From: Chitinophagaceae bacterium
GTDB lineage: Bacteria > Bacteroidota > Bacteroidia > Chitinophagales > Chitinophagaceae
DNA: 64,000 bases
NCBI GenBank assembly: GCA_019638615.1
Contig: JAHBTL010000007.1
Span: 124,001-188,000 of the forward strand
Direction: 5' to 3'
A program made the position numbers and the translations under genes. Under the pieces are notes generated by a model, which saw only the letters and a program-made list of their open reading frames with translations, ran no database searches and was not told the origin of the DNA. Positions 22,352 to 33,649 of this stretch are shown in pieces (the first letter of the stretch is position 1; each line of letters starts with the position of its first letter).

Positions 22352-22415
22352 GTAAAATGTTTCATTCTTACCGTTAAATGTTTTCATAAGTCGTAGTCCT
22401 ATTATTCTAATTTTG
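22352..22415 (+). promoter_or_regulatory. AraC-type tandem operator and promoter, copy A (araC gene)
   Basis: Half-site GTAAAATGTTTCA at 22352-22364 is repeated as GTTAAATGTTTTC at 22373-22385, exactly 21 bp later. A TAATTTTG -7 box is at 22408-22415, starting 35 bp after the second half-site begins. No TTTG -33 box is present where expected; the second half-site overlaps that position. Copies B (25644) and C (31482) have identical spacing. Confidence 0.8.
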
Positions 22416-22441
22416 TACATTTAAAATTACAGCATTTTGGA

Positions 22442-23290
22442 ATGAGCAAAATTTATAACATACCGTCTTTTCTGAAATATATCAACGTTAACGGTACTAA
22501 CAGTGATATGATACAGGTTGTACACTATGATGAGCATCCCGATATTTTACTGAAATCGCTTCCCGCTGAAATTGACTTTTATTTATTGGCACTAAAAGAT
22601 AAAATCGAAGTACAGTCGCCTGTTGAAAGTATGTCCGACAGTTATCTGTATCTTGACAAACCCGGGAATAAGATTGAATGGGATTTAAAAAATCCTTTTT
22701 CAGGTTATGCAATTTTTGTAAACGAAAAGCTGTTGAGCAAAACGATTAAGGACATTTCTTTTGCCAATTATGATCGGCACGAAGCCCTATTTTTAACACC
22801 TGAAGAAAAAGACACCTTGTATGATTTGTTTTCAAAATCCTATAAGGAATATCAGAAAGGAAACTTTTCCAAAGAAGTATTAATTTCCTATACCTCATTG
22901 ATTATTTCTTATACACAAATCTATTATGAACGTCAGTTTGAAGCCCGAAGTAAAATATATAACAAAGTAGTTGCCGATTTTTACCAACAATTAGATGCCT
23001 TTCTTAATAACGAAAATGGATTGTCCGAGCTTCCGTCCGTAACGTATTTTGCAGAAAAAGCCAACCTGTCCACCAATTATTTCGGGGATTTAATTAAACA
23101 TTTCACAGGCACTTCCCCGATTGACCATATTCACGAAGGAATTATACAATTAGCTAAAAACAAATTACGGCAGCCAAAGCTATCCGTAAGTGAAATTGCT
23201 TACAGTTTGGGATTCGATTACCCAACTTACTTCACGAGGTTCTTTCGCCAGAAAACAGGCATATCCCCCAAAGTATTCAGAAACCAGTGA
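22442..23290 (+). CDS. AraC-family transcriptional regulator
   Basis: This 282-residue protein has an N-terminal sensor-like domain of unknown ligand (about 1-170) and a C-terminal double helix-turn-helix (about 190-282). VTYFAEKANLSTNYFGDLIK is the first HTH and VSEIAYSLGFDYPTYFTRFF the second, followed by the usual KTGISPKVFR end. Its promoter carries a 21-bp-period tandem operator that also precedes two other transcription units in the island, so autoregulation and control of those units are inferred. The poor -33 box at all three suggests activation. It is translationally coupled to a secreted flavodoxin (TGATG overlap). The effector is unknown. Confidence 0.9.
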   Translation: MSKIYNIPSFLKYINVNGTNSDMIQVVHYDEHPDILLKSLPAEIDFYLLALKDKIEVQSPVESMSDSYLYLDKPGNKIEWDLKNPFSGYAIFVNEKLLSKTIKDISFANYDRHEALFLTPEEKDTLYDLFSKSYKEYQKGNFSKEVLISYTSLIISYTQIYYERQFEARSKIYNKVVADFYQQLDAFLNNENGLSELPSVTYFAEKANLSTNYFGDLIKHFTGTSPIDHIHEGIIQLAKNKLRQPKLSVSEIAYSLGFDYPTYFTRFFRQKTGISPKVFRNQ

Positions 23291-23835
23291 TGAAATATCT
23301 TATCTTAATTTGCCTGTTTGTATTTCAGGCGTTCAACACTAATGCACAGACAATGACGAACAATAAAACGCTTATCATTTATTTTTCCCATTCCAACAAC
23401 ACGAAGCAAATAGTGGAATGGATACAGGAGAAAACAAAGGCAGATATTATCCGTATTGAGCCGGAAACGCCTTATCCGTCAGGCTATCAGGAAACCATAG
23501 ATGAGATGTCCAGACAAAATAAAGGGAAAATATTACCGCCTTTTAAAAAAGTTGATATAAACATTCAAGAGTATGATACTATTTTCTTTGGTCATCCTGT
23601 TTGGGATATGCGGTTACCACCGGTAGTGAGGACATTTTTACGGAATAATGATTTCAGCGGAAAGACGATTATTCCGTTCAATACCCACGCAGGTTATGGT
23701 ACAGGAAAGAGCGTAAACGAAATCAAAGAGTTTGCACCCAAAGCAACCGTAATGGAAGCCCTTTCCATAACGGACAGCAATGTCAAAAACGCAAAACCCG
23801 AAGTGGAAAAGTGGGTGGAAAAGGTGCTGAATTAA
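23290..23835 (+). CDS. Exported flavodoxin-like protein
   Basis: This 181-residue protein has a Sec signal peptide (MKYLILICLFVFQAFNTNAQ) and a flavodoxin fold. The FMN phosphate loop is YFSHSNNTKQI (residues about 31-41), followed by FFGHPVWDMRLPP and FNTHAGYGTGKS segments typical of flavodoxin_4-type NAD(P)H-quinone or electron-transfer proteins. Export of a flavodoxin is unusual and points to periplasmic electron transfer. The ATG at 23290 overlaps the araC stop (TGATG); a GTG one codon earlier is possible. A second membrane-anchored flavodoxin lies at 32223 under the same predicted operator. Confidence 0.8.
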   Translation: MKYLILICLFVFQAFNTNAQTMTNNKTLIIYFSHSNNTKQIVEWIQEKTKADIIRIEPETPYPSGYQETIDEMSRQNKGKILPPFKKVDINIQEYDTIFFGHPVWDMRLPPVVRTFLRNNDFSGKTIIPFNTHAGYGTGKSVNEIKEFAPKATVMEALSITDSNVKNAKPEVEKWVEKVLN

Positions 23836-23880
23836 AATTTAGTCTATTTGTTTAATAATTTTACTCATTGACCATTAAAA

Positions 23881-24402
23881 ATGAACGTAAAAATCAGACA
23901 GGAAACACAGGACGACTTCAATGTCGTTTTTGAGGTAAATAAACTCACTTTCGGACAGGAAAACGAAGCAAAACTTGTTGAATTATTACGACAAAGCAAT
24001 GCTTTTGTTGCCGAACTTTCGTTAGTGGCAACGGTTGATAATAAAATTATCGGACACATTCTTTTTTCAAAAATCATCATTGTTGATGACAACCATAATG
24101 AATTTGAAAGTTTGGCACTCGCTCCAATGGCGGTTATACCGGAATTTCAGCAAAAAGGAATTGGCGGACAGCTTATCAGAAGCGGGCTTGACAAGGCAAA
24201 AGAACTGCAATACCAATCCGTAATTGTATTGGGACACGAGCATTATTACCCGAAATTTGGTTTTGTGCCTGCTGACAAATGGAATATTAAAGCACCTTTT
24301 GACGTTCCGGCAAATGTTTTTATGGGAATTGAATTAACCACTGACGGGCTTAAAGACGTAAGCGGAACGGTAAAATACCCGAAAGCGTTTGAAGCCGTGT
24401 AG
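23881..24402 (+). CDS. GNAT-family N-acetyltransferase
   Basis: This 173-residue acetyltransferase has the acetyl-CoA-binding motif QQKGIGGQLIRSGL after the beta-4 strand LAPMAVIPEF. The YhbS-like segment VLGHEHYYPKFGF is near the C-terminus. The substrate is unknown. It lies 45 bp after the flavodoxin gene with no terminator between, so it probably belongs to the araC-flavodoxin transcript. A terminator follows at 24435. Confidence 0.85.
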   Translation: MNVKIRQETQDDFNVVFEVNKLTFGQENEAKLVELLRQSNAFVAELSLVATVDNKIIGHILFSKIIIVDDNHNEFESLALAPMAVIPEFQQKGIGGQLIRSGLDKAKELQYQSVIVLGHEHYYPKFGFVPADKWNIKAPFDVPANVFMGIELTTDGLKDVSGTVKYPKAFEAV

Positions 24403-24434
24403 AAAATATGACCCGGAATATTTAGAAAAAACAC

Positions 24435-24462
24435 AGCCCTGATTTTCGGGGCTTTATTTTTT
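24435..24462 (+). terminator. Terminator of the araC-flavodoxin-GNAT unit
   Basis: AGCCCTGA pairs with the downstream TCGGGGCT across a short T loop, with one G-T pair, and a T-rich tract follows. Confidence 0.75.
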
Positions 24463-24513
24463 ACATAACTTTTAAGACGCTGACACTTCTTTTCAAAAAT
24501 AATCGCTCTGATA

Positions 24514-24546
24514 TTTGGGTTATTACTTAGTGACTATTTATCTTTG
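24514..24546 (+). promoter_or_regulatory. Bacteroidota-type promoter of the marR gene
   Basis: TTTG at 24514-24517 and TATCTTTG at 24539-24546 are separated by 21 bp. The ATG lies about 20 bp downstream of the -7 box, leaving a very short leader. Confidence 0.6.
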
Positions 24547-24565
24547 TATCTAAGATATTTAGGTG

Positions 24566-25033
24566 ATGAGTAAAAAAGACAAAGACAATTTGCTCTTGCA
24601 ATTCAGAAACGCAAGCCGGCAATATTCGGACGCTTCAATCTTTATGCACGAAGCTATTGCACGTAAAGCGGGGCTGTCAGGCTCTGACCACAAATATTTG
24701 GGGCTTATTCTGCAACATAAGGAATTAACAGCAGGCAACCTTTCAAAACTTACAGGACTGACAACAGGTGCGGTAACAGGCTTAATTGACCGCTTGGAAA
24801 AAAAGAAATTACTCAAAAGGCAATTTACCAAAGACGACAGGAGAAAAGTAATCATCGTTCCAAATGTTGAGAACAGTATGAAACTTTTGCAACCGATTTT
24901 TAGTGAGCTTCAGGAAAAAACGGCAAGCCTTATTCATACCTTTTCAGAAGATGAAATACAGACTATTGAACGCTATTTTATTGAAGCGACAAGCATAATG
25001 AAAGAAACAACCGAAAAATTAAACAACAGATAA
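24566..25033 (+). CDS. MarR-family transcriptional regulator
   Basis: This 155-residue winged-helix regulator has the recognition region GNLSKLTGLTTGAVTGLIDRL and the wing KRQFTKDDRRKVIIV (about residues 55-100), flanked by dimerisation helices. The ATG at 24566 is preferred over a GTG one codon earlier. MarR proteins usually repress their own operon and respond to small aromatic or oxidising ligands. Here the only co-transcribed partner is the 4-helix membrane protein that follows 1 bp after the stop, the likely target. Confidence 0.9.
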   Translation: MSKKDKDNLLLQFRNASRQYSDASIFMHEAIARKAGLSGSDHKYLGLILQHKELTAGNLSKLTGLTTGAVTGLIDRLEKKKLLKRQFTKDDRRKVIIVPNVENSMKLLQPIFSELQEKTASLIHTFSEDEIQTIERYFIEATSIMKETTEKLNNR

Positions 25034-25034
25034 A

Positions 25035-25547
25035 ATGATAAAAATGGAAAATATTACTGCGAACTATCTGACAAGAGCCGAAATATGGCTTTGCATTACA
25101 ACGCTCATTTATTTTTTACTGAATGGGGCACAGATTTTTGAAACGTTTGTTTTCGTTCCAAAATGGGTTGCTTCGCCACCTGACAACTTTAATTTGTTAT
25201 TGGATGGACGAGGAGCAAGTTTAAAATTCTTTTGGATAATATTCCATTCGTTGCACGAAATCACTTTTATACTTGCGATTATTTTTTGTTGGAAAATTGA
25301 CCCCGTTAGAAATTGGTTGCTCATCTTATTTTTCATTCATTTTGCCGTAAGAGTTTGGACACTTACCTATTTTGCCCCCAATATTATTGACTTTCAAAAA
25401 GTAGCGGAAAATCCATCTGTTGCAAAAGACCTGATAAACCGAACTTCACTTTGGCAGACACTCAACTATGTAAGAGTTGCCATTTTCATAGCTGTTTCTA
25501 TTGGGCTTGTTCCATTATGTATAAAGTTGTTTAATCTGCGACATTAA
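25035..25547 (+). CDS. Four-helix membrane protein, DUF1772/anthrone-oxygenase-like
   Basis: This 170-residue protein has four predicted membrane helices (about 15-35, 70-90, 97-115 and 145-165). The arrangement, and the YFAPNIIDFQ and WQTLNYVRVAIF segments, resemble the DUF1772 family, some members of which are annotated as anthrone oxygenase-like. That resemblance is from memory of the family and is moderate. It begins 1 bp after the marR stop, so it is likely MarR-controlled. Function is unknown. Confidence 0.6.
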   Translation: MIKMENITANYLTRAEIWLCITTLIYFLLNGAQIFETFVFVPKWVASPPDNFNLLLDGRGASLKFFWIIFHSLHEITFILAIIFCWKIDPVRNWLLILFFIHFAVRVWTLTYFAPNIIDFQKVAENPSVAKDLINRTSLWQTLNYVRVAIFIAVSIGLVPLCIKLFNLRH

Positions 25548-25577
25548 CAATATTAATACGTATTTATAACTTAAACC

Positions 25578-25682
25578 ACAGCCCCGAAATCATGGCTTTT
25601 TATTTGCCGTTTCGTTTTACAACACACCTAAAATCCCAAATCCGTAAAATGTTTCATTTTTAGAGTGATATGTTTTCGTTTA
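25578..25682 (+). repeat. About 105-bp duplicated terminator-plus-operator block, copy 1
   Basis: This block is nearly identical to 31415-31519 apart from a few substitutions and a small indel. It contains a weak stem AGCC...GGCT with T-tail ending the previous unit, the GTTTTACAACAC segment, and the whole AraC-type tandem operator. Similarity stops just before the -7 region. Confidence 0.8.
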
Positions 25683-25707
25683 CCCCCTTTTGCCTGATAT
25701 AATTTTG
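25644..25707 (+). promoter_or_regulatory. AraC-type tandem operator and promoter, copy B (DLH-like hydrolase)
   Basis: Half-sites GTAAAATGTTTCA (25644-25656) and GTGATATGTTTTC (25665-25677) are 21 bp apart. The -7 box TAATTTTG is at 25700-25707, 35 bp from the second half-site start, exactly as in copies A and C. The hydrolase ATG is 37 bp further on. Confidence 0.8.
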
Positions 25708-25743
25708 TACTATCAAAAAGTATAATCATAAAAAGTAAATATT

Positions 25744-26664
25744 ATGTCACAAGAAAAAATCAGTATCAAAAACGGAAACGGACAAGGAATTACCCTTGCG
25801 GCAATTATCAATTTCCCTGAAGGATTTGATAAGAACAAAAAATATGCTTCAGTAATTGTTTCTCACCCGGGTGGCGGCGTGAAGGAGCAGACCGCAGGCT
25901 TATACGCTAAAAAATTAGCAGAAAACGGATTTGTAACCATAGCTTACGATGCTTCTTACCAGGGCGAAAGCACAGGCGAGCCACGCCAGTTGGAAAACCC
26001 TTATATCCGTACAGAAGATGTAAGTGCAGTGGTTGATTATTTAACTACACTTCCTTATATCGATACAGAAAATATCGGAGCTATGGGTATCTGTGCAGGA
26101 GCAGGTTATACTGCCAATGCAGCCATTAACGACCACCGTATCAAAGCAGTGGGAATGGTAAGTGCAGTAAATATCGGTTCTATGTTCCGTAACGGTTGGG
26201 AAAACAATGTGAAAGATGCCGATGCGATGCCTTATTTATTGGCAGGTGCAAACGCAAGAACTGCCGATGCAAAAGGCGGCAATCAAACAATGCCATTGGC
26301 TCCGATGAAAGAGGAAGATGCCCCTAACGAAGAGTTGAGAGAAGCGTGGGAATATTACCACACCAATCGTTGCCAATACCCAACGGCACCGGGTTGGACA
26401 ACATTGAGAAACCTGACACAAATCATCACATATGATGCATACAACAAAGCAGAAGCATTCTTCACGCAACCGTTATTGGCAGTAGTAGGAAGCAATGCAG
26501 GAAGTGCGTGGATGAGCGACGACCTGATTGAGCGTGCCGCTTCAACAGACAAAACAAAATACGTGGTAGAAGGTGCCAACCATATGTCCTTGTACGATGG
26601 CGAAAACTATGTAAAGGAAGCCGTATCGCAATTAGCACCGTTCTTCAAAAAGAACTTAGCATAA
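25744..26664 (+). CDS. Dienelactone-hydrolase-like alpha/beta hydrolase with Cys nucleophile
   Basis: This 306-residue cytoplasmic alpha/beta hydrolase (YcjY/DLH-like) has no signal peptide. The nucleophile elbow is GICAG, with Cys117 in place of Ser, as in dienelactone hydrolase. The oxyanion region is SHPGGGVKEQ (about 40-49), the acid is probably in WMSDD (about 257) and the general base is His280 in GANHMSLYDG. Its promoter carries the AraC-type tandem operator. Possible roles are hydrolysis of lactones, thioesters or electrophilic esters; the substrate cannot be read from sequence. A second Cys-nucleophile hydrolase follows. Confidence 0.85.
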   Translation: MSQEKISIKNGNGQGITLAAIINFPEGFDKNKKYASVIVSHPGGGVKEQTAGLYAKKLAENGFVTIAYDASYQGESTGEPRQLENPYIRTEDVSAVVDYLTTLPYIDTENIGAMGICAGAGYTANAAINDHRIKAVGMVSAVNIGSMFRNGWENNVKDADAMPYLLAGANARTADAKGGNQTMPLAPMKEEDAPNEELREAWEYYHTNRCQYPTAPGWTTLRNLTQIITYDAYNKAEAFFTQPLLAVVGSNAGSAWMSDDLIERAASTDKTKYVVEGANHMSLYDGENYVKEAVSQLAPFFKKNLA

Positions 26665-26687
26665 GTATTAGATCAGCAATAAAAATT

Positions 26688-26726
26688 AAAGCCGGGCGGT
26701 GCTGATGAAGCCTGTTCCGGCTTTTT
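26688..26726 (+). terminator. Terminator between the two Cys-type hydrolase genes
   Basis: AAAGCCGG pairs with CCGGCTTT across a loop of about 20 nt, with T-run TTTTT. It sits only 27 bp before the next ATG, so the second hydrolase probably depends on partial read-through from the first. Confidence 0.7.
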
Positions 26727-26753
26727 AATTTCTAACAATAAATATTTTATAAA

Positions 26754-27776
26754 ATGGAAAATCAGGTAAACCTTGCCGGATCGGCTTTTCAGTCAACCGG
26801 TAAAGCAAGAATTTCAAAAGAGAATTTAGAAAAAGCTGTTGAGCAATTAAATAGTATTTCAGCAGAAGATTACGAAAAAGTACAGGGAATGGTAGGCGTT
26901 GTAAAACGCGATTTCAGAAGTATCCTGCACAAAACACCCGATGATTACGGTATGCAAAACTGGGAGGATATTTTCTTTCCCGCAGCAGATGGTGTGCCGT
27001 TGAGTGGGTGGTACATCCCCGCAGCAGGAGGAGAAAGCGACAAGCTGATTATTTATAACCATGCCCTGCCAATGTCCCGTGCAGGTTTTCAGGGTCATTT
27101 GGGTGAGCCATTCAGCAATTTTGATAACGTGGAAATCGACTTTGTTATCCAGATGAAACACCTTACTGATGCAGGATACAATGTACTGGCTTACGACATC
27201 CGTAACCACGGGCAAAGCGGAGCGGCAAACAACGGTATGAGCGGCATCGGGCTTTTGGAGTGGCGGGATTGTGTAGGCGTTAAAAACTATGTGGATAGTC
27301 ATCCGAGATTGAGCAAAATGAAAGTAGGTCTGTTCAGCCAGTGTATGGGCGGATGTTCGCAATATGTGGCTATTGACAAACGCCCTGAACTGTTTGAAAA
27401 TGTGCTGTGCCTCGCAAGTCCATTAGTACCGTCTATGGAAGCTATCTATCAGGCGTTTTCAGAATTGCAGGGTGTATCGCAATACCTGGAACTATTGGAT
27501 TTGGAGCTTGTGAAAGCGGGAGGCTTCACCAGAGCAGAAATGGACCCGAAATTATACACAAAGAACATCAAGATGCCACTTTTAATGTGGCAGGTGAAAG
27601 AGGATGCGTGGACAAAAAACCCTGAAGATGCACAGGCAACTTTTGATACTATTCCAAGTGCTGAAAAGGAATTACATTGGATTGAGGGAACACCTCACAG
27701 ATTTAAGGACGGTTACAATTATTTCGGCAGAACACCGGAAAAAGTAATCGCATTCTTTGACAAGCATATGAAGTAA
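26754..27776 (+). CDS. Alpha/beta hydrolase with Ser-x-Cys-x-Gly elbow
   Basis: This 340-residue alpha/beta hydrolase starts with a roughly 65-residue helical N-terminal extension. It then shows LIIYNHALPMSRAG (oxyanion region, about 98-111), YDIRNHGQSG (about 148-156) and the nucleophile elbow FSQCMGG with Cys197 where Ser is usual. The likely general base is His in EGTPHRFKDG near the C-terminus. It follows the DLH-like gene after a terminator and shares the Cys nucleophile, suggesting a functional pair. The substrate is unknown. The family is common in Bacteroidota next to AraC regulators, but I cannot name a characterised member. Confidence 0.75.
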   Translation: MENQVNLAGSAFQSTGKARISKENLEKAVEQLNSISAEDYEKVQGMVGVVKRDFRSILHKTPDDYGMQNWEDIFFPAADGVPLSGWYIPAAGGESDKLIIYNHALPMSRAGFQGHLGEPFSNFDNVEIDFVIQMKHLTDAGYNVLAYDIRNHGQSGAANNGMSGIGLLEWRDCVGVKNYVDSHPRLSKMKVGLFSQCMGGCSQYVAIDKRPELFENVLCLASPLVPSMEAIYQAFSELQGVSQYLELLDLELVKAGGFTRAEMDPKLYTKNIKMPLLMWQVKEDAWTKNPEDAQATFDTIPSAEKELHWIEGTPHRFKDGYNYFGRTPEKVIAFFDKHMK

Positions 27777-27788
27777 ATATTTTTATAA

Positions 27789-27828
27789 AACAACAGGGGA
27801 TACAACGAAATTTTCCTCTGTTGTTTTT
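27789..27828 (+). terminator. Terminator after the second hydrolase
   Basis: ACAACAGGGGA pairs with TCCTCTGTTGT, with one G-T pair. The loop is about 12 nt and a T-run follows. Confidence 0.85.
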
Positions 27829-27873
27829 ACAAATTAGAATACAACAGGCAGAAAATTTAGCATTAGATTTTTA

Positions 27874-28019
27874 TTTGGGCGTGCCCCCTTTGCATTTTTG
27901 CCAACGCACAATAGCCCAATACAAAAAATGCAAGCGGGTCGGGCTATCCGCTGCAAGTCCTCGCTACGTTTCACTTCGCTGTGGGCTTTCCGCTTCTATC
28001 CCCAAAGCGAAACGCATAA
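27874..28019. repeat. Bacteroidota intergenic repeat, copy 1
   Basis: GGGCGTG...GGGTCGGGCT-type repeat with internal palindromic pairing (GCATTTTTGCC region against AAAAAATGCAAGCGGG). A related copy lies at 28952-29092 in the same orientation. The two frame the ECF sigma gene. The family recurs in many Bacteroidota intergenic regions. Confidence 0.7.
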
Positions 28020-28050
28020 AACAATAAAGTTGAAGCATTTTCTCAAAACC

Positions 28051-28078
28051 TGTCACATTATTACCTTTGAAATTGTCT
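28051..28078 (+). promoter_or_regulatory. ECF41-type promoter P1 (sigma gene itself)
   Basis: TGTCACA at 28051-28057, 15 bp, then TTGTCT at 28073-28078. The shared core TTTGAAATTGTCT is identical at P2 (30493) and P3 (30992). The ATG is 18 bp downstream of the -10 element. Confidence 0.8.
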
Positions 28079-28095
28079 AACTCTAAAATCAAAAA

Positions 28096-28932
28096 ATGGA
28101 CGATTTAAACATATTGAACAAAAAACTATTTCCTTATGCTTACAACATTTTGGGAAATATTGACGATTGCCAAGACGTAATTCAAGACGTTTTAATAAAA
28201 TTCAATGAAAAAGAGGTTAGTTCAATCTCTAATCAAAATGCGTATCTGATAAAATCGGTCATTAACCAATCCATAAATCTGAAAAAGAAAAACGACAGAG
28301 AAAGGCAACAAAAAATCACATTGCCTGAACCAATCGTTACCAATCAAGGCGAAAGCAAAATTGAATTAGATGAAATACTTAACTATTCAATGTTCGTTTT
28401 ACTCGATACTTTGAATACCAAAGAAAGAGCCGTTTTCTTACTCAAAGAAGCGTTTGATTACGAACACGATGAAATTGCTGAAATATTAGAAATTTCCGTA
28501 GAAAATTCAAGGCAACTACTCACAAGAGCCAAAAAGAAATTGAAGTTGCGAAAACCCGAAATCGCAACTTCGCCTGCAAAAGACCGAAAATATTTAGAAA
28601 AATATGTGAACGCAATCCGCAAAGGCGATGTGAAAACGTTGGAACAAATGCTGTCTGACGAAGTGCAGGTTCTGGCAGATGCAGGAAGCAAATTACAGGC
28701 TGTTGCTGAAATGACTTCGGGAATTGACGACACCATTAAGCTGATGACATATATTTTTGAATACTATCAAAAAGACCTTGAAATAAAAATCGAAGAAATC
28801 AATCATCAATCTGCATTACTGTTTTACAGAGGCACAACCTTGATAAACTGTCAGATATTTGAGCTAAACCCAGACGGAAAAATCACAAGTATTTTTTCTG
28901 TCGTTGACCCTGACAAACTGATGAAGATATAA
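28096..28932 (+). CDS. ECF41-type RNA polymerase sigma factor with SnoaL-like C-terminal domain
   Basis: This 278-residue sigma factor has region 2 (about 5-65, including GNIDDCQDVIQDVLIKF), region 4 (about 95-150, including LLDTLNTKERAVFLLKEAF and the IAEILEISVENSRQLLTRAKK HTH) and a C-terminal SnoaL-like domain (about 165-278). ECF41 factors carry a DGGGK motif in the linker and NPDKL at the C-terminus; here DAGSK (195-199) and DPDKL (271-275) occupy those places. In this group the C-terminal domain regulates activity in place of a separate anti-sigma factor, and none is seen nearby. A TGTCACA promoter precedes it (autoregulation). Confidence 0.88.
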   Translation: MDDLNILNKKLFPYAYNILGNIDDCQDVIQDVLIKFNEKEVSSISNQNAYLIKSVINQSINLKKKNDRERQQKITLPEPIVTNQGESKIELDEILNYSMFVLLDTLNTKERAVFLLKEAFDYEHDEIAEILEISVENSRQLLTRAKKKLKLRKPEIATSPAKDRKYLEKYVNAIRKGDVKTLEQMLSDEVQVLADAGSKLQAVAEMTSGIDDTIKLMTYIFEYYQKDLEIKIEEINHQSALLFYRGTTLINCQIFELNPDGKITSIFSVVDPDKLMKI

Positions 28933-28951
28933 AACAATACATTTAAAATAT

Positions 28952-29092
28952 TTTGGGCGTGTCCCTTTGCATTTTTGCCAACGCACGAAAACCCAACGCA
29001 AAAAATGCAAAGGGTCGGGCTTTACGTTCCAATCTTTTTGTTCGTTCCTCACAAAAAGGATTTCCACTGCAATCCCTCACGCAAAGCGAACA
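28952..29092. repeat. Bacteroidota intergenic repeat, copy 2
   Basis: Same family and orientation as 27874-28019. It starts TTTGGGCGTG, carries TTTGCCAACGCAC, and includes TGCAATCCCTCACGCAAAG near its end. It lies between the sigma gene and the convergent hxlR gene. Confidence 0.7.
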
Positions 29093-29103
29093 GTAGAAAA
29101 AAA

Positions 29104-29427
29104 TCACTTTTTCAAACCTTGATGATACAATCCCCATTTTTCCAATTCGTTCATCATCGGTTTTATGGACTTGCCGACTTTTGACAGTTTATACTCAACG
29201 GTTGGCGGAACGGTTGCGTAAACTTTTCGTTCAACCAAACCGTCTGTTTCCAAACTTTTTAACTGCATTGAAAGCATTTTGGGCGTAATACCGACAATCA
29301 TTCTTTCCAATTCTTTAAAACGAACAATGTCATTTCTAACCAATGCGTGAATGATTGGCAACTTCCATTTTCCTCCTAAAAGTTGGACGGAATGTTCTAT
29401 CGGACAAATTTTTTCATTTTTTTTCAT
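29104..29427 (-). CDS. HxlR-family transcriptional regulator
   Basis: This 107-residue winged-helix protein is of full family length. The N-terminal CPIEHSVQLLGGKWKLPII carries the conserved Cys, followed by the RFKELERMIVGITPKMLSMQLK recognition helix and the VERKVYATVPPTVEYKLS wing. HxlR proteins often sense electrophiles or oxidants through the N-terminal Cys and repress divergently transcribed genes. Here it is divergent from an exported esterase, with two palindromes in the shared promoter region. Confidence 0.92.
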   Translation of the reverse strand: MKKNEKICPIEHSVQLLGGKWKLPIIHALVRNDIVRFKELERMIVGITPKMLSMQLKSLETDGLVERKVYATVPPTVEYKLSKVGKSIKPMMNELEKWGLYHQGLKK

Positions 29428-29459
29428 ACGCTCAACTATTGAATTATCAAAAAACTATA

Positions 29460-29523
29460 CAAAAGTAAACTAATATACTTTATTCTCACTACTTTCAAAA
29501 GTATATTTTTAAAATTACTTTTG
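29460..29523. promoter_or_regulatory. Divergent hxlR/esterase promoter region with two palindromic operators
   Basis: AAAGTA-N8-TACTTT (29462-29481) and TACTTT-CA-AAAGTA (29490-29503) are palindromes. -7-like TACTTTTG boxes lie at 29516-29523 (plus strand, esterase), and at 29467-29460 and 29503-29496 (minus strand, hxlR). The palindromes overlap both hxlR -7 boxes, fitting autorepression. The esterase ATG is 18 bp after its -7 box. Confidence 0.65.
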
Positions 29524-29541
29524 CAAAAAAATAGAGATACA

Positions 29542-30420
29542 ATGCGAACAACAATTAAAATTCTTTTAACCCTCTTAATTTCAACAACAATGAATGCTCA
29601 AACAACAAGCGTATTAGAGAAAGTAAATAACGACAGACAGTTTTTTGAAACACTCGGAAACATTTATCCTGTCAGCAAAAACGTGAAAATTTCGGACACG
29701 CAGATTACCAATGTGAAATGTTATTGGTTTCAGCCAAAGACTGAAAAGAACGAAAATATCATCGTCTATTTACACGGTGGTTCTTTTGCATTGGGAAGTA
29801 TCAATTCTCACAAAGCAATGGTTAGCCAAATTGCTGAAACAACCAACTCAAAAATCCTTTTTATCGAATATTCCCTTGCACCCGAAAACCCTTTTCCTGT
29901 TGCAATAAACGAAATAGTAAACGTGTATAAAGCGTTGCTAAAAAGCTATCCGAAAAGTAAAATTATATTTATGGGCGATAGTGCAGGTGGTGGTTTGGCG
30001 GTTTCGGGCATTCATTCCATTGCCGAAAATAAATTACAACTTCCGTCTTCCGTGATTTTGCTTTCGCCTTGGATTAACCTGAAATGCAATACCAATTCGT
30101 ACAAAACACGACAAAAAACTGACCCGATTTTAACCAAACAAAATTTATTGGAATACGCTGAATATTATTTGGACAGCTCGGCAAATGCAGACCCGAATGA
30201 ACTTGTTTTTGAGCATTTTCCGCCTGTTTTTGTATTGGTCGGAAGCAATGAAATTTTATTTGACGATGCCCGAAATTTCTATGATTACATAAAAACAATC
30301 CAACCCAATGCAAAATTCAAAGAATACGAAAATCAAACCCACGTTTGGTTATTGACGAATATCAGTAGCGAAAAATCAAAAGAAACATTGGACGATATAA
30401 AGGATTTAGTAAATAATTAA
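29542..30420 (+). CDS. Exported HSL-type esterase/lipase (alpha/beta hydrolase)
   Basis: This 292-residue enzyme has a signal peptide (MRTTIKILLTLLISTTMNAQ). It is of the hormone-sensitive-lipase family: HGGSFALGS (His78-Gly-Gly oxyanion motif), SLAPENPFP, nucleophile Ser147 in GDSAGGG, an acidic residue in NEILFDD, and the base His in ENQTHVW near the C-terminus. A TTG start 21 bp upstream is less likely than the ATG because the signal peptide begins at the ATG. Divergence from hxlR makes HxlR control probable. The substrate is an acyl ester, otherwise unknown. Confidence 0.88.
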   Translation: MRTTIKILLTLLISTTMNAQTTSVLEKVNNDRQFFETLGNIYPVSKNVKISDTQITNVKCYWFQPKTEKNENIIVYLHGGSFALGSINSHKAMVSQIAETTNSKILFIEYSLAPENPFPVAINEIVNVYKALLKSYPKSKIIFMGDSAGGGLAVSGIHSIAENKLQLPSSVILLSPWINLKCNTNSYKTRQKTDPILTKQNLLEYAEYYLDSSANADPNELVFEHFPPVFVLVGSNEILFDDARNFYDYIKTIQPNAKFKEYENQTHVWLLTNISSEKSKETLDDIKDLVNN

Positions 30421-30432
30421 GCATTACAAATC

Positions 30433-30458
30433 AAGCCCCGAAAAAATCGGGACTTTTT
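30433..30458 (+). terminator. Terminator after the esterase
   Basis: AGCCCCGA pairs with TCGGGACT across an AAAA loop, with one mismatch, followed by five T. Confidence 0.65.
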
Positions 30459-30492
30459 CTTTTACTCTTTCATTTCAGAAAAAATCCTTTTC

Positions 30493-30520
30493 TGTCACGC
30501 TTCGGAATTTGAAATTGTCT
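30493..30520 (+). promoter_or_regulatory. ECF41-type promoter P2 (ABM-like gene)
   Basis: TGTCACG at 30493-30499, 15 bp, then TTGTCT at 30515-30520. It has the same TTTGAAATTGTCT core as the sigma gene's own promoter. Confidence 0.8.
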
Positions 30521-30538
30521 TGTAAGAAATTAAAGAAA

Positions 30539-30967
30539 ATGAACAGACAAATTTTAACTTTCGTAAGCACTCTTTTGGTTAGTGCAATTTTGGGAACAAG
30601 TATTTCTTATGCCCAAAATTCAAAACAAAACAATTTATCAACTTCAAAAACAACAGAAAAAATGATTATAGTAAAAGTTACTTATATCGTAAATGACGAG
30701 TATGTAAACACAAACAAAGAACTAATACAAGCGTTTCTAACGGATTTCAAAAAGTTAGACAAAACTCAATTTTTGTATTCAGTTTTTCAAAGTGAAGACG
30801 GAAAAATATTTATCCATACTTCACAATACAAAAACAAAGACATACAACAAATTTTACTGAATACTCCGAGTTTTCTATATTTCCAAGAACAACGGGATAA
30901 AAATCTTGCTTCTGAACCAACAATCGAACTTCTTAATTATGTTGGAGCGTCAAAAGAAGTGTTTTAA
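30539..30967 (+). CDS. Exported small protein, ABM-like fold suspected
   Basis: This 142-residue protein has a signal peptide (MNRQILTFVSTLLVSAILGTSISYAQ). The mature part is about 115 residues with the strand-helix-strand pattern MIIVKVTYIV...ELIQAFLTDF...IFIHTSQYKN, reminiscent of the dimeric alpha+beta barrel (ABM, quinol monooxygenase-like) fold. No domain is named with certainty. The ATG at 30539 is chosen over a TTG 30 bp upstream that falls inside the promoter. It lies under an ECF41-type promoter, so it is a predicted target of the sigma factor at 28096. Confidence 0.7.
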   Translation: MNRQILTFVSTLLVSAILGTSISYAQNSKQNNLSTSKTTEKMIIVKVTYIVNDEYVNTNKELIQAFLTDFKKLDKTQFLYSVFQSEDGKIFIHTSQYKNKDIQQILLNTPSFLYFQEQRDKNLASEPTIELLNYVGASKEVF

Positions 30968-30991
30968 AAGTTCTCAAAAACAAATCTTATC

Positions 30992-31019
30992 TGTCACGTT
31001 TCGCAATTTGAAATTGTCT
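30992..31019 (+). promoter_or_regulatory. ECF41-type promoter P3 (YCII-like gene)
   Basis: TGTCACG at 30992-30998, 15 bp, then TTGTCT at 31014-31019. The core sequence is nearly identical to P2, including CAATTTG/GAATTTG before AAATTGTCT. Confidence 0.8.
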
Positions 31020-31047
31020 TGTATGAAATAATTAAATTTTATAGACA

Positions 31048-31392
31048 ATGAAAGAATTTGTATTGATTTTCAGATTAAAAGACATTTCCGATTTCAGACC
31101 AACGCCTGAACAAATGCAGGAACGTATGAATTGGTTGGCAGGTATTGCTTCACAAAACAAATTAGCGGACAAAGGCAACACGCTTTTGCCATTTGCAGGA
31201 AGTGCAAAAACCATAAAAGCTAACAACGAAGTAACAGACGGATTTCACACCGAAATCAAAGAATTTGTTAGCGGCTACGTTGTTGTAAAAGCCGATACTA
31301 TTGATGAAGCAGTAGAAATGGCAAAAGACAATCCGATTTTTGACCAAGTAAGTGGAAATATCGAAGTGAGAGAAGTTTTGAAGAGAGATTGA
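31048..31392 (+). CDS. YCII-related protein
   Basis: This 114-residue cytoplasmic protein has a ferredoxin-like dimeric alpha+beta fold typical of the YciI/YCII family: MKEFVLIFRLKDI at the N-terminus, RMNWLAGIASQNKLADKG, FVSGYVVVKADTIDEAVEMAKDNP, and a final EVREVLKRD strand. YCII-like genes are frequent partners of ECF sigma factors. Here an ECF41-type promoter lies directly upstream. Biochemical function is unknown. A strong terminator follows. Confidence 0.85.
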   Translation: MKEFVLIFRLKDISDFRPTPEQMQERMNWLAGIASQNKLADKGNTLLPFAGSAKTIKANNEVTDGFHTEIKEFVSGYVVVKADTIDEAVEMAKDNPIFDQVSGNIEVREVLKRD

Positions 31393-31414
31393 AATTTACA
31401 AAATAATAAAAATT

Positions 31415-31519
31415 CAGCCCCGATTTCGGGGCTTTTTATTTGCCATTTCGTTTTACAACACGCTCAATTAAATCAAAATCCGTAAAATGTTTCATTTTTA
31501 GCGTGATATGTTTTCGTTT
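31415..31519 (+). repeat. About 105-bp duplicated terminator-plus-operator block, copy 2
   Basis: Second copy of the block at 25578-25682. It contains the YCII gene terminator, GTTTTACAACAC and the full AraC-type tandem operator. The duplication explains how two separate units came under the same operator. Confidence 0.8.
31416..31437 (+). terminator. Terminator after the YCII-like gene
   Basis: AGCCCCGA-TT-TCGGGGCT is a perfect stem followed by five T. It is part of the 105-bp block shared with 25578-25682. Confidence 0.9.
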
Positions 31520-31545
31520 ATCCGATGTATCGGTAGTTAATTTTG
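31482..31545 (+). promoter_or_regulatory. AraC-type tandem operator and promoter, copy C (SDR-flavodoxin-SDR operon)
   Basis: Half-sites GTAAAATGTTTCA (31482-31494) and GTGATATGTTTTC (31503-31515) are 21 bp apart. The -7 box TAATTTTG is at 31538-31545, 35 bp from the second half-site start. The ATG lies 26 bp after the -7 box. Confidence 0.8.
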
Positions 31546-31571
31546 CTATATCAAAATCATAACATTCAGAT

Positions 31572-32207
31572 ATGGCAACAAAAGTATTGGTGTTAGGGGC
31601 AAACGGAGCAATTGCACAACACGTCATCACATTTCTTAGTAAGAAAGAGAATATAGAATTAACGTTGTTTGCAAGAGATACTAAACCTATAAAACAGCTT
31701 GAAACAACTACAAAAATCATTGAAGGCGATGTGTTGAACACAAACGATTTGAACGAAGCTGTCAAAGGACAGGATATTGTTTATGCCAACCTTTCGGGAG
31801 CGGTAGATAAAATGGCAAAAGAAATTGTATTGGCAATGAATGCCAACGGTATAAAACGCCTGATATTCGTTACCTCGTTAGGTATTTATAAAGAAGTAGC
31901 CGGAAAATTCGGAGAATGGAACGAAAGGATGATTGGCTCTGATTTAATCCCTTACCGTAAAGCGGCTGACCTTATCGAAAAGTCAGGTTTGGACTATACC
32001 GTTGTCCGCCCCTCTTGGCTAACCAATAATGATGAAACAGATTACGAAACCACGCAGAAAGGCGAACCGTTCAGAGGTACGGAAGTGGCAAGAAAAGCAG
32101 TAGCGGCATATATTTCGGATATTATCGAAAATCCCGAAAAAGATGTAAAAGCAAGTGTGGGCGTCAATAAACCGGGCGTTTATGGCAACAAGCCCGCTTT
32201 TTATTAG
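31572..32207 (+). CDS. NAD(P)H-binding atypical SDR (NmrA-like)
   Basis: This 211-residue Rossmann protein has the dinucleotide-binding loop VLGANGAIAQHV at the N-terminus, the ARDTKPIKQL segment after beta-2 (NADP phosphate recognition likely), EGDVLN, FVTSLGIY and YTVVRPSWLTN. The catalytic YxxxK pair is not evident, so it may be a redox sensor or atypical reductase. It is the first gene of a three-gene operon (16 bp and 1 bp spacers) controlled by the AraC-type operator. Confidence 0.85.
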   Translation: MATKVLVLGANGAIAQHVITFLSKKENIELTLFARDTKPIKQLETTTKIIEGDVLNTNDLNEAVKGQDIVYANLSGAVDKMAKEIVLAMNANGIKRLIFVTSLGIYKEVAGKFGEWNERMIGSDLIPYRKAADLIEKSGLDYTVVRPSWLTNNDETDYETTQKGEPFRGTEVARKAVAAYISDIIENPEKDVKASVGVNKPGVYGNKPAFY

Positions 32208-32856: not shown

Positions 32857-33423
32857 ATGAAAATCAAAGTAATCATCACAGGAGCCACCGGAATGGTAGG
32901 CGAAGGCGTATTGCAGGAATGTATTGCTAATCCCAAAGTGGAAAAAATATTACTGATTAACCGTAAGCCAAGCGGTTATTCCAACTCCAAAATCGAAGAA
33001 ATCATTCATTCGGATTTGAGCGATATTTCGACCATTGCCGAAAAAATAAACGGTTATGATGCCTGTTATTTTTGTGCAGGTGTTTCTGCCGTAGGGATGA
33101 GCGAGGAGCAATACACTAAAGTAACCTATAATTTGACACTGGCTTTTGCAAAAATATTACTTGAAATAAGTCCTCAAATGACGTTCTGTTATGTATCGGG
33201 AGCGAGTACCGACAGTACCGAAAAAGGAAAACAAATGTGGGCAAGGGTGAAAGGCAAAACGGAAAATGATTTGATGAAGCTGACTTTTAAAGCGGTTTAT
33301 AATTTTCGTCCTGCCTTTATGAAACCATCTAAAGGAGCAAAGAATGTAAAAGGATTTTATAAAGTCATCAATGCCTTGTTCCCATTTTTCAGGTTGTTCA
33401 GCAAAACGTATCTGCCGAAATAA
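32857..33423 (+). CDS. NAD-dependent epimerase/dehydratase-like protein, C-terminus altered
   Basis: This 188-residue Rossmann protein has the loop ITGATGMVGEGVLQE at the N-terminus, LINRKPSGYS after beta-2, and CYVSGASTDSTEKG and VKGKTENDLMKL in the catalytic region. Homologues I recall run somewhat longer after the NALFPFFR segment. Here the frame ends soon after, in SKTYLPK, precisely where a helicase fragment begins on the other strand. The end therefore looks truncated at a recombination junction and function may be impaired. It is the last gene of the AraC-controlled operon. Confidence 0.75.
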   Translation: MKIKVIITGATGMVGEGVLQECIANPKVEKILLINRKPSGYSNSKIEEIIHSDLSDISTIAEKINGYDACYFCAGVSAVGMSEEQYTKVTYNLTLAFAKILLEISPQMTFCYVSGASTDSTEKGKQMWARVKGKTENDLMKLTFKAVYNFRPAFMKPSKGAKNVKGFYKVINALFPFFRLFSKTYLPK

Positions 33424-33649
33424 TGAGCCTGTCCAGCATTTCATTGGCAGCATTTCTGGTAAAAGTAATAGCCAGAATATTGGACGGATTGATACCTTTC
33501 TCTTCGATAAGGTAAATGAGTTTTTGAAGGAGTGTCTTTGTCTTTCCGGAGCCTGCGCCCGCCAGAACCAAAAGTCTTTTACACTCACTAACAACCGCCT
33601 GACGTTGTTTTTCATTCAATCTGCTTAAATCAGTTTGGATTTCAGACAT
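33398..33649 (-). pseudogene. UvrD/Rep-like helicase, N-terminal fragment only
   Basis: About 80 residues of an SF1 helicase remain: the Q-motif region RLNEKQRQAVVSE, Walker A LAGAGSGKTKTLLQKL and motif Ia NILAITFTRNAANEML. Then the frame runs into unrelated sequence and stops. The remaining roughly 600 or more residues are absent on either side of the island. The break lies at about 33400-33425, coincident with the altered end of the epimerase-like gene. It is 4 bp after the DNA-binding-domain gene at 33654, which was its operon partner. Confidence 0.85.

What the first reader, a model, noticed from the sequence alone, without database searches (positions are those of the whole stretch)
22352..31545. 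Three island promoters share a tandem AraC-type operator with identical spacing
GTAAAATGTTTCA and a second half-site (GTTAAATGTTTTC or GTGATATGTTTTC) occur 21 bp apart at 22352/22373, 25644/25665 and 31482/31503. In all three the second half-site starts exactly 35 bp before a TAATTTTG -7 box, and the expected TTTG -33 box is missing at each. AraC-family activators commonly bind tandem sites about two helical turns apart that overlap the -35 region. The three promoters drive araC-flavodoxin-GNAT, the DLH-like hydrolase, and the SDR-flavodoxin-SDR operon. I infer one autoregulated regulon.
Basis: partly seen in the sequence, partly recalled or inferred. Interest (0 to 1): 0.8.

Follow-up and report, generated by a model that had tools for sequence, protein, structure and literature searches.

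The report
Transferable AraC regulon with tandem operators
Three promoters in a gene island carry the same paired docking site, most likely for the island's own AraC-type switch protein, and the site is kept before matching genes in distant bacteria that hold related copies of the switch and its enzymes.

Summary
With up to 3 mismatches the motif occurs in the 7.18-Mb genome only here. Sites 2 and 3 are one duplicated ~140-bp promoter, so the window alone gives two independent examples; orthologous loci give the rest. Of 19 araC genes of the clade examined (50-100% identity), 16 have the operator at their own promoter, and it recurs before YcjY-like hydrolase, second-hydrolase and redox genes. 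In 31 of 34 catalogued operators an exact TAnnTTTG lies 34 or 35 bp from half-site 2, and at no other distance from 25 to 45. Half-site 1 is 90% identical between promoters whose upstream flanks are 27-34% identical. Among 298 genomes of the order, the motif is in exactly the two with the regulator. Best reading: an autoregulated, horizontally transferred AraC regulon with class II activation; binding and activation are inferred, not tested. New member of a known kind. A wider 21/35 layout with other half-site letters shows at many distant AraC loci, less clearly in the host genome.

The parts
22352..22385 (+). tandem operator of araC (half-sites 22352-22364 and 22373-22385)
   Evidence: sequence; 46.5 bits with the matrix from non-window operators
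22408..22415 (+). TAATTTTG -7 box of the araC promoter, 35 bp from the start of half-site 2
22442..23290 (+). AraC-family regulator, 282 aa
   Evidence: HTH_18 9.9e-19; relatives of 74-91% identity
23287..23835 (+). flavodoxin (Flavodoxin_4), overlapping the araC stop
   Evidence: ortholog also directly behind araC in L006 and L093
23881..24402 (+). GNAT acetyltransferase, probably last gene of the operon (terminator-like stem 24435-24453)
25644..25677 (+). tandem operator of the YcjY-like hydrolase gene
   Evidence: 47.1 bits
25679..25682 (+). TTTA in the place of a -33 TTTG, 17 bp before the -7 box
   Evidence: TTTG at this place in 4 of 18 target promoters
25700..25707 (+). TAATTTTG -7 box
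25744..26664 (+). alpha/beta hydrolase, YcjY ortholog ('DLH1')
   Evidence: 71.6% to E. coli YcjY; 5xb6 E 1.1e-146
26754..27776 (+). second alpha/beta hydrolase ('ABH2'); a terminator-like stem lies before it at 26707-26724, so at most partly read from the operator upstream
   Evidence: relatives have their own operator in L009, L015, L016 and L017
31482..31515 (+). tandem operator of the SDR operon, duplicate of the one at 25644
   Evidence: 47.2 bits; duplication 25579-25718 / 31415-31556
31517..31520 (+). TTTA in the place of a -33 TTTG, 17 bp before the -7 box
31538..31545 (+). TAATTTTG -7 box
31572..32207 (+). NAD(P)-binding SDR-like reductase ('SDR1', NAD_binding_10)
   Evidence: 56% to the SDR next to ycjY in E. 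coli
32223..32855 (+). flavodoxin 2
32857..33423 (+). second SDR-like protein

Best explanation
The island encodes an AraC-family activator that binds tandem 13-bp half-sites (about GTAAWNTGTTTCA-N8-GTDAWNTGTTTYN), 21 bp apart and so on one face of the DNA, as a dimer. With the -7 box placed at -12 to -5, half-site 2 lies at about -47 to -35 and half-site 1 at about -68 to -56, so the promoter-proximal subunit sits against the sigma factor at a promoter with a weak or absent -33 element: class II activation. On an unknown inducer, probably a toxic small molecule, it switches on its own operon (araC-flavodoxin-GNAT), the YcjY-like hydrolase and the SDR-flavodoxin-SDR operon. The regulator, its operators and core enzymes move together between bacteria. 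Shown by sequence: the sites, their conservation, their fixed geometry and their co-occurrence with the regulator. Inferred: that AraC is the protein that binds, that it activates, and that the enzymes detoxify.
For: Exact geometry in the window; unique in the genome. Same operator at the promoter of 16 of 19 araC genes of the clade and at 18 catalogued target promoters (two of them the window's duplicate pair): exact TAnnTTTG at 34 bp (9) or 35 bp (22) in 31 of 34, at no other distance between 25 and 45; the box was not used to pick the sites, except for L112 (found by a pattern with the box) and L092 and the two of L102 (by eye). A pattern that allowed six spacings to the box found 12 sites in 11 of 17 regulator genomes, all 12 with the same spacing, none for the reversed control; one, G306:C4:159254, lay outside the fetched loci and stands before a YcjY-like gene. 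Footprint: half-site 1 identity 0.90-0.91 against 0.27-0.34 in the 60 bp upstream, for 12 of the 16 araC and 13 of the 18 target operators. Co-occurrence: 2 of 298 order genomes carry the regulator and the same 2 carry the motif. Transfer: AraC 86-91% identical in four genomes whose GyrA is 59-78% identical, and only 79% in one whose GyrA is 94%. A paralog in the same genome (51-52%) has its own diverged operator with the same 21/35 geometry. AraC-type HTH domain; the DNA-binding part of the model matches AraC-type structures.
Against: No binding or expression data. 3 of 19 araC genes (L013 first copy, L016, L017) have no operator of their own, so autoregulation is not universal. Three araC promoters have an imperfect -7 box, one YcjY promoter in L010 has a 22-bp period and no exact box, and the araC sites of L013, L018 and L092 score 14.7-17.7, inside the range of the background (99% at 10.6, maximum 22.7). 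Activation is argued from position only. The strict motif with 3 mismatches missed 8 of 14 regulator genomes, and the pattern missed 6 of 17. In the phylum set the motif turned up once without regulator (G505, 2 mismatches, no -7 box at 34-35 bp) and was missing in G563, whose regulator is 50% identical and whose half-sites differ.
Confidence: 0.84

Rival explanations
1. The tandem site is an operator of the AraC protein, but the protein represses these promoters, or represses without and activates with inducer.
For: AraC-type proteins can do both (recalled). The araC promoters have a more varied half-site 2 and more often 34 bp instead of 35 bp to the box (8 of 13 with exact box, against 1 of 18 targets), so own and target promoters may be handled differently.
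Against: The sites end about 22 bp upstream of the -7 box and leave it free; the -33 element is weak or absent, which suits need of an activator.
Confidence: 0.1
2. Another regulator of the island (MarR 24563, HxlR 29104, or the SigJ-like ECF factor 28096) reads the tandem site.
For: These genes lie between the operators.
Against: L005, L007, L010 and L093 have the operator with araC, hydrolase and SDR genes but no blastp match (E up to 1e-5) to these three proteins among the ORFs of the stretch fetched. Direct tandem repeats before a housekeeping -7 box do not suit an ECF factor (inference).
Confidence: 0.04
3. The likeness of the three promoters is only the result of recent promoter duplication, with no regulator behind it.
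For: Sites 2 and 3 share about 140 bp.
Against: Site 1 shares only a 36-bp stretch, the operator, with the others, and the operator is kept in loci of other orders whose flanks are unlike.
Confidence: 0.02

Closest known systems
CphR / XylS-type operators (cphA2A1 promoter of Rhodococcus)
   Same: [quoted passage not shown] here about -35 to -68
   Different: other half-site letters, Bacteroidota -7 box, different enzymes; no binding data here
AraC-family rhamnose regulators of Bacillales, Bacteroides and Enterococcus
   Same: unique DNA motifs with a direct repeat of 21-bp periodicity, inferred by comparative genomics (PMC3870299, passages)
   Different: sugar catabolism, other regulators; the distance to the -7 box is not mentioned in the passages seen
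E. coli pgrR-ycjY-SDR region and the same module on proteobacterial plasmids
   Same: YcjY (71.6-73.8%) and SDR (55-56%) orthologs in the same order, with a second hydrolase in Klebsiella and Rhizobium
   Different: there a divergent LysR-type gene stands before the module; here an AraC-type gene
E. coli YqhC-YqhD
   Same: regulator of reductase genes answering to aldehydes (PMC6115493, start of the abstract in a search listing)
   Different: only an analogy of gene kinds; no homology was tested

Membership tests
AraC/XylS transcription factors | C-terminal double helix-turn-helix domain | tested here: met
   HTH_18 67.9 bits over cut-off 33.6, HTH_AraC 39.7 over 26.6; DNA-binding part aligned to AraT, AdpA, SoxS, MarA and AraC domain structures
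AraC/XylS transcription factors | N-terminal sensing and dimerisation domain of the AraC kind | tested here: inconclusive
   model pLDDT 86.8 with strands and two long helices; full-length hits CsvR, Rns, ToxT have TM about 0.3, and AraC arm-domain structures match only at E about 0.01
AraC-type class II operator | tandem direct half-sites about 21 bp apart | tested here: met
   among periods 14-30, 21 stands out at 62 distant AraC loci (33 loci against 0-12)
AraC-type class II operator | promoter-proximal half-site next to the -35/-33 element at a fixed distance from the -7/-10 box | tested here: met
   34 or 35 bp in 31 of 34 operators
AraC-type class II operator | bound by the regulator and needed for activation | not testable with these tools
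   needs footprint and reporters
Bacteroidota housekeeping promoter | TAnnTTTG at -7 | tested here: met
   position -12 to -5 from PMC9723704 (passage)
Bacteroidota housekeeping promoter | TTTG at about -33 | tested here: not met
   absent in the three window promoters; TTTA in two; TTTG in 4 of 18 target promoters
Autoregulated regulon | operator at the regulator's own promoter, kept in orthologs | tested here: met
   16 of 19 araC genes; missing in 3
Autoregulated regulon | expression of araC and targets depends on the regulator | not testable with these tools
   needs an araC deletion

The most novel reading that the evidence does not exclude
The three promoters are one instance of a general layout for a large set of Bacteroidota AraC regulators: half-site 2 starts about 35 bp before TAnnTTTG and half-site 1 a further 21 bp upstream, while the letters of the half-site change with the regulator. 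Then a regulator's operator can be read from its neighbourhood by self-similarity alone, giving a recognition table for many regulators. Support: 33 of 62 distant AraC loci have such a pair at period 21 against 0-12 loci at other periods, with several unlike half-site sequences; a diverged paralog and a diverged ortholog keep the geometry. Against: many of the 62 loci are close kin and I did not check which gene each pair stands before; in the window's own genome only 8 of 59 other AraC neighbourhoods show it at 9 of 13 matches (other periods 0-3) and 4 of 59 at 10 of 13 (other periods 0-1), while 1 of 16 control stretches of the window also has one at 10 of 13. In addition the AraC regulator seems to stand where Proteobacteria have a LysR-type one before the YcjY module.
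Probability: 0.4. Interest if true: 0.62.

Novelty: new member of a known kind. Interest (0 to 1): 0.45.

Why it matters
It gives a testable operator, unique in its genome, for an uncharacterised AraC regulator, with predicted targets in about ten named genera, and indicates that regulator, operator and enzymes travel as a unit between orders of Bacteroidota. The fixed geometry offers a simple way to predict operators of AraC proteins in this phylum and to ask which residues set the half-site letters. It also links the YcjY-SDR module to two different kinds of regulator.

Tried and rejected
Rejected: chance; duplication alone; another island regulator. Void: my pattern had a spacing of 8 instead of 9, so its zero means nothing. 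One search had one wrong-strand row (L112); corrected, whose numbers are used. The G505 match (L115) was looked at as a possible regulator-free site: no -7 box at 34-35 bp in the printed stretch. A candidate target of the paralog at L092:9142 (period 21, box at 35) has no called gene of at least 70 aa behind it on its strand; left open. A plasmid search for the regulator (E up to 1e-30) gave 16 records, all under 60% identity, so no vehicle was found. No tRNA in the window. Of 33 plasmid records with a YcjY relative I looked at 4. A look for a helicase remnant left of the island, by eye on the longest open stretch of each of six frames, showed nothing clear.

Searches for print: 'GTAAAATGTTTC' anywhere, 3 papers, all on other subjects; AraC family, flavodoxin, dienelactone hydrolase, Bacteroidetes, horizontal gene transfer, at least 4 of 5 terms, 2 papers, unrelated by title; AraC-type, direct repeats, Bacteroidetes, autoregulat, activator, operator, at least 5 of 6, 1 paper, PMC3870299; TAnnTTTG with Bacteroidetes, promoter, AraC, 1 review. 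Further listings: (of the last, 46 and 51 only 12, 12 and 10 of many papers were listed). I did not find this regulon in print in these listings; the library holds open-licence papers only.
Full report
Observation. The three places read exactly as described. A scan of the window and 84 loci with a half-site consensus at period 21 (up to 4 mismatches over both halves) finds these three with no mismatch and, for each, TAATTTTG 35 bp after the start of half-site 2. The genome (7,180,285 bases, 87 contigs) has three matches to the full motif with up to 3 mismatches, all here; the reversed pattern has none. A shorter pattern (ATGTTTY twice, 14 apart) has four places, three of them here, and two for the reversed control.

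Independence. Local alignment shows that 25579-25718 and 31415-31556 are copies, terminator stem included, while the araC promoter shares only 36 bp with either. In seven orthologous loci with SDR1 behind a hydrolase gene (L005, L007, L010, L011, L012, L014, L093) no operator was found before SDR1, so the window's third site probably arose when that promoter was copied in front of a relocated SDR1 (inference).

Comparative evidence. One scan of genome contigs (84,980 species) found 94 stretches with a relative and kept 80 loci; 14 (L005-L018) hold relatives of at least 50% identity, from Proteiniphilum, Pedobacter, Niabella, Elizabethkingia, Myroides, Sphingobacterium, Flavihumibacter, Winogradskyella, Galbibacter, Aquimarina, a Chitinophagaceae and a Catalimonadaceae. 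I read 18 of the 80 (L005-L022) gene by gene and scanned all 80 for the motif. In that scan hits with a -7 box at 34 or 35 bp occurred in L005-L012 and L022; the hits in L015, L036, L044, L053, L056 and L079 had no exact box. Upstream regions of genes chosen after looking were then scored with a matrix from the window half-sites, box not used: promoters later listed as operators scored 14.7-35.3 (L102 and L112 were not scored there); random stretches of the same length had a median of -2.5, a 99th percentile of 10.6 and a maximum of 22.7 (n 5352). Other genes of the island (ABH2, GNAT, marR, sigJ, ABH3) scored below 0.

Geometry. The catalogue has 16 araC operators and 18 target operators, window included. 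Exact TAnnTTTG lies at 34 bp in 8 and 35 bp in 5 of the araC operators, with 3 imperfect boxes; at 35 bp in 17 and 34 bp in 1 of the target operators. No exact box lies at any other distance from 25 to 45. L112 was found by a pattern that contains the box; L092 and the two of L102 were picked by eye with the box in view; for the others the box was not used. Left out of the catalogue: three araC genes without operator (L013 first copy, L016, L017), the L010 hydrolase promoter with a 22-bp period, and L019-L022 (38-40% identical regulators), where a site of the same kind stands before an SDR-araC operon (the SDR was confirmed for L019, L020 and L022). Targets and own promoters differ: half-site 2 is near GTRATNTGTTTTC in most targets and more varied at araC; the 34 against 35 split has Fisher p 0.0012, not corrected for kinship.

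Footprint. For 12 of the 16 araC and 13 of the 18 target operators in fixed register, mean pairwise identity is 0.27 and 0.34 in the 60 bp upstream, 0.91 and 0.90 in half-site 1, 0.53 and 0.52 in the spacer, 0.66 and 0.85 in half-site 2, 0.61 and 0.86 in the -7 region.

Blind pattern. Half-sites plus a box at any of six spacings, searched in 17 regulator genomes, gave 12 sites in 11 genomes, all with one spacing, and none for the reversed pattern; 6 of 17 genomes had none, and of the window's three sites it catches the two target sites. The site at G306:C4:159254 lies outside locus L013, about 12 kb away if C4 is the same contig (inference), and stands before a gene that reads like YcjY.

Co-occurrence and transfer. 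In 298 genomes of the order, 2 have a regulator at E up to 1e-60 (G000, G159) and the same 2 have the motif with up to 3 mismatches; the reversed control matched once each in G043 and G116. The protein search scored at most 8 candidates a genome. In 392 genomes of the phylum the regulator was found in G000 and G563 (at most 6 candidates scored) and a looser motif with up to 2 mismatches in G000 and G505. G505's match has no -7 box at 34-35 bp. G563's regulator (50%) has diverged operators, GTAAAAATTGAAA/GTGAAAACTTAAA at araC (34 bp) and GTAAATAGTTAAA/GTAATTACTTTAA before a hydrolase-like gene (35 bp). AraC is 88, 88, 86 and 91% identical in L005, L006, L010 and G159, whose genomes have GyrA 59, 62, 60 and 78% identical; L007's genome has GyrA 94% but AraC 79%. 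I read this as horizontal transfer. Most of the island is also poorer in G+C: 0.32-0.44 per kb from 22 to 34 kb, against 0.43-0.46 from 14 to 21 kb; the two hydrolase genes at 26-28 kb are not poor (0.43-0.44).

A second pair in the same genome. G000:C23:237124 encodes a 51-52% identical regulator with GTAAAAAGTATCC and TTAAAAAGTATCC at period 21 and TATTTTTG at 35 bp. A search with its letters finds that site with 1 mismatch and the araC site of the window with 3.

What it regulates. The hydrolase is a YcjY ortholog. On plasmids of Klebsiella and Rhizobium, and on an E. coli record filed as plasmid, the YcjY gene and the SDR follow a divergent LysR-type gene (pgrR in E. coli), with a second hydrolase between them in Klebsiella and Rhizobium; Agrobacterium has the LysR-type gene and two hydrolases. 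In L018 the target genes are a Flavodoxin_2 protein and an adh_short SDR. A detoxifying role is my inference.

Mechanism. With the -7 box at -12 to -5 (PMC9723704, passage) the operator spans about -68 to -35. CphR, an AraC/XylS-type activator, uses two direct repeats at -35 to -69 (PMC6205950, passages). A 21-bp direct repeat is reported for AraC-family rhamnose regulators in Bacillales, Bacteroides and Enterococcus (PMC3870299, passages). So the layout is known in kind.

Wider layout. Without any letter pattern, pairs of 13-mers at least 10 of 13 alike, 33-40 bp before TAnnTTTG, were counted by period in the 62 loci L023-L084, both strands: 33 loci at period 21; 12 at 15, 8 at 18, and 0-4 at the other periods from 14 to 30 (grid). 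The half-sites fall into several unlike kinds (GTTTGATTTTCTT, TAAAAAAGGTANG and others). Many loci are close kin, so 33 overstates the number of independent cases, and I did not check which gene each pair stands before. In 59 other AraC neighbourhoods of the window's genome (from 66 HTH_18 matches) the count at period 21 is 8 at 9 of 13 matches and 4 at 10 of 13, against 0-3 and 0-1 for other periods; but 1 of 16 stretches of the window outside the island also has one at 10 of 13. So the excess over other periods is there, the excess over ordinary stretches is not shown in this genome.

Noticed in passing
window 29009-29092 (-): Flavo-1 RNA (RF01705), 58.1 bits, just downstream of the HxlR gene on the same strand.
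   Followed up: no
window 33398-33649 (-): An 83-aa UvrD-helicase N-terminal piece overlaps the end of the second SDR gene at the right border of the island; it may mark where the island interrupted a helicase gene.
   Followed up: partly
G000:C23:237033-237066 and 237124-237975 (L092): Second regulator-operator pair with diverged half-sites and the same 21/35 geometry.
   Followed up: partly
L092:9142 (+): A further site with half-site letters like the paralog's, period 21 and TACATTTG at 35 bp, with no clear gene behind it.
   Followed up: partly
window 28096-28929 (+): SigJ/SigX4-like ECF sigma factor with a C-terminal extension, without the tandem operator at its promoter.
   Followed up: no
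L014 about 5858-6180: The operator behind araC stands before what looks, by eye, like a broken start of a YcjY gene, followed by the second hydrolase.
   Followed up: no
L116, L118, L119: The YcjY-SDR module beside LysR-type genes, in Rhizobium next to integrases and an IS21 element.
   Followed up: partly
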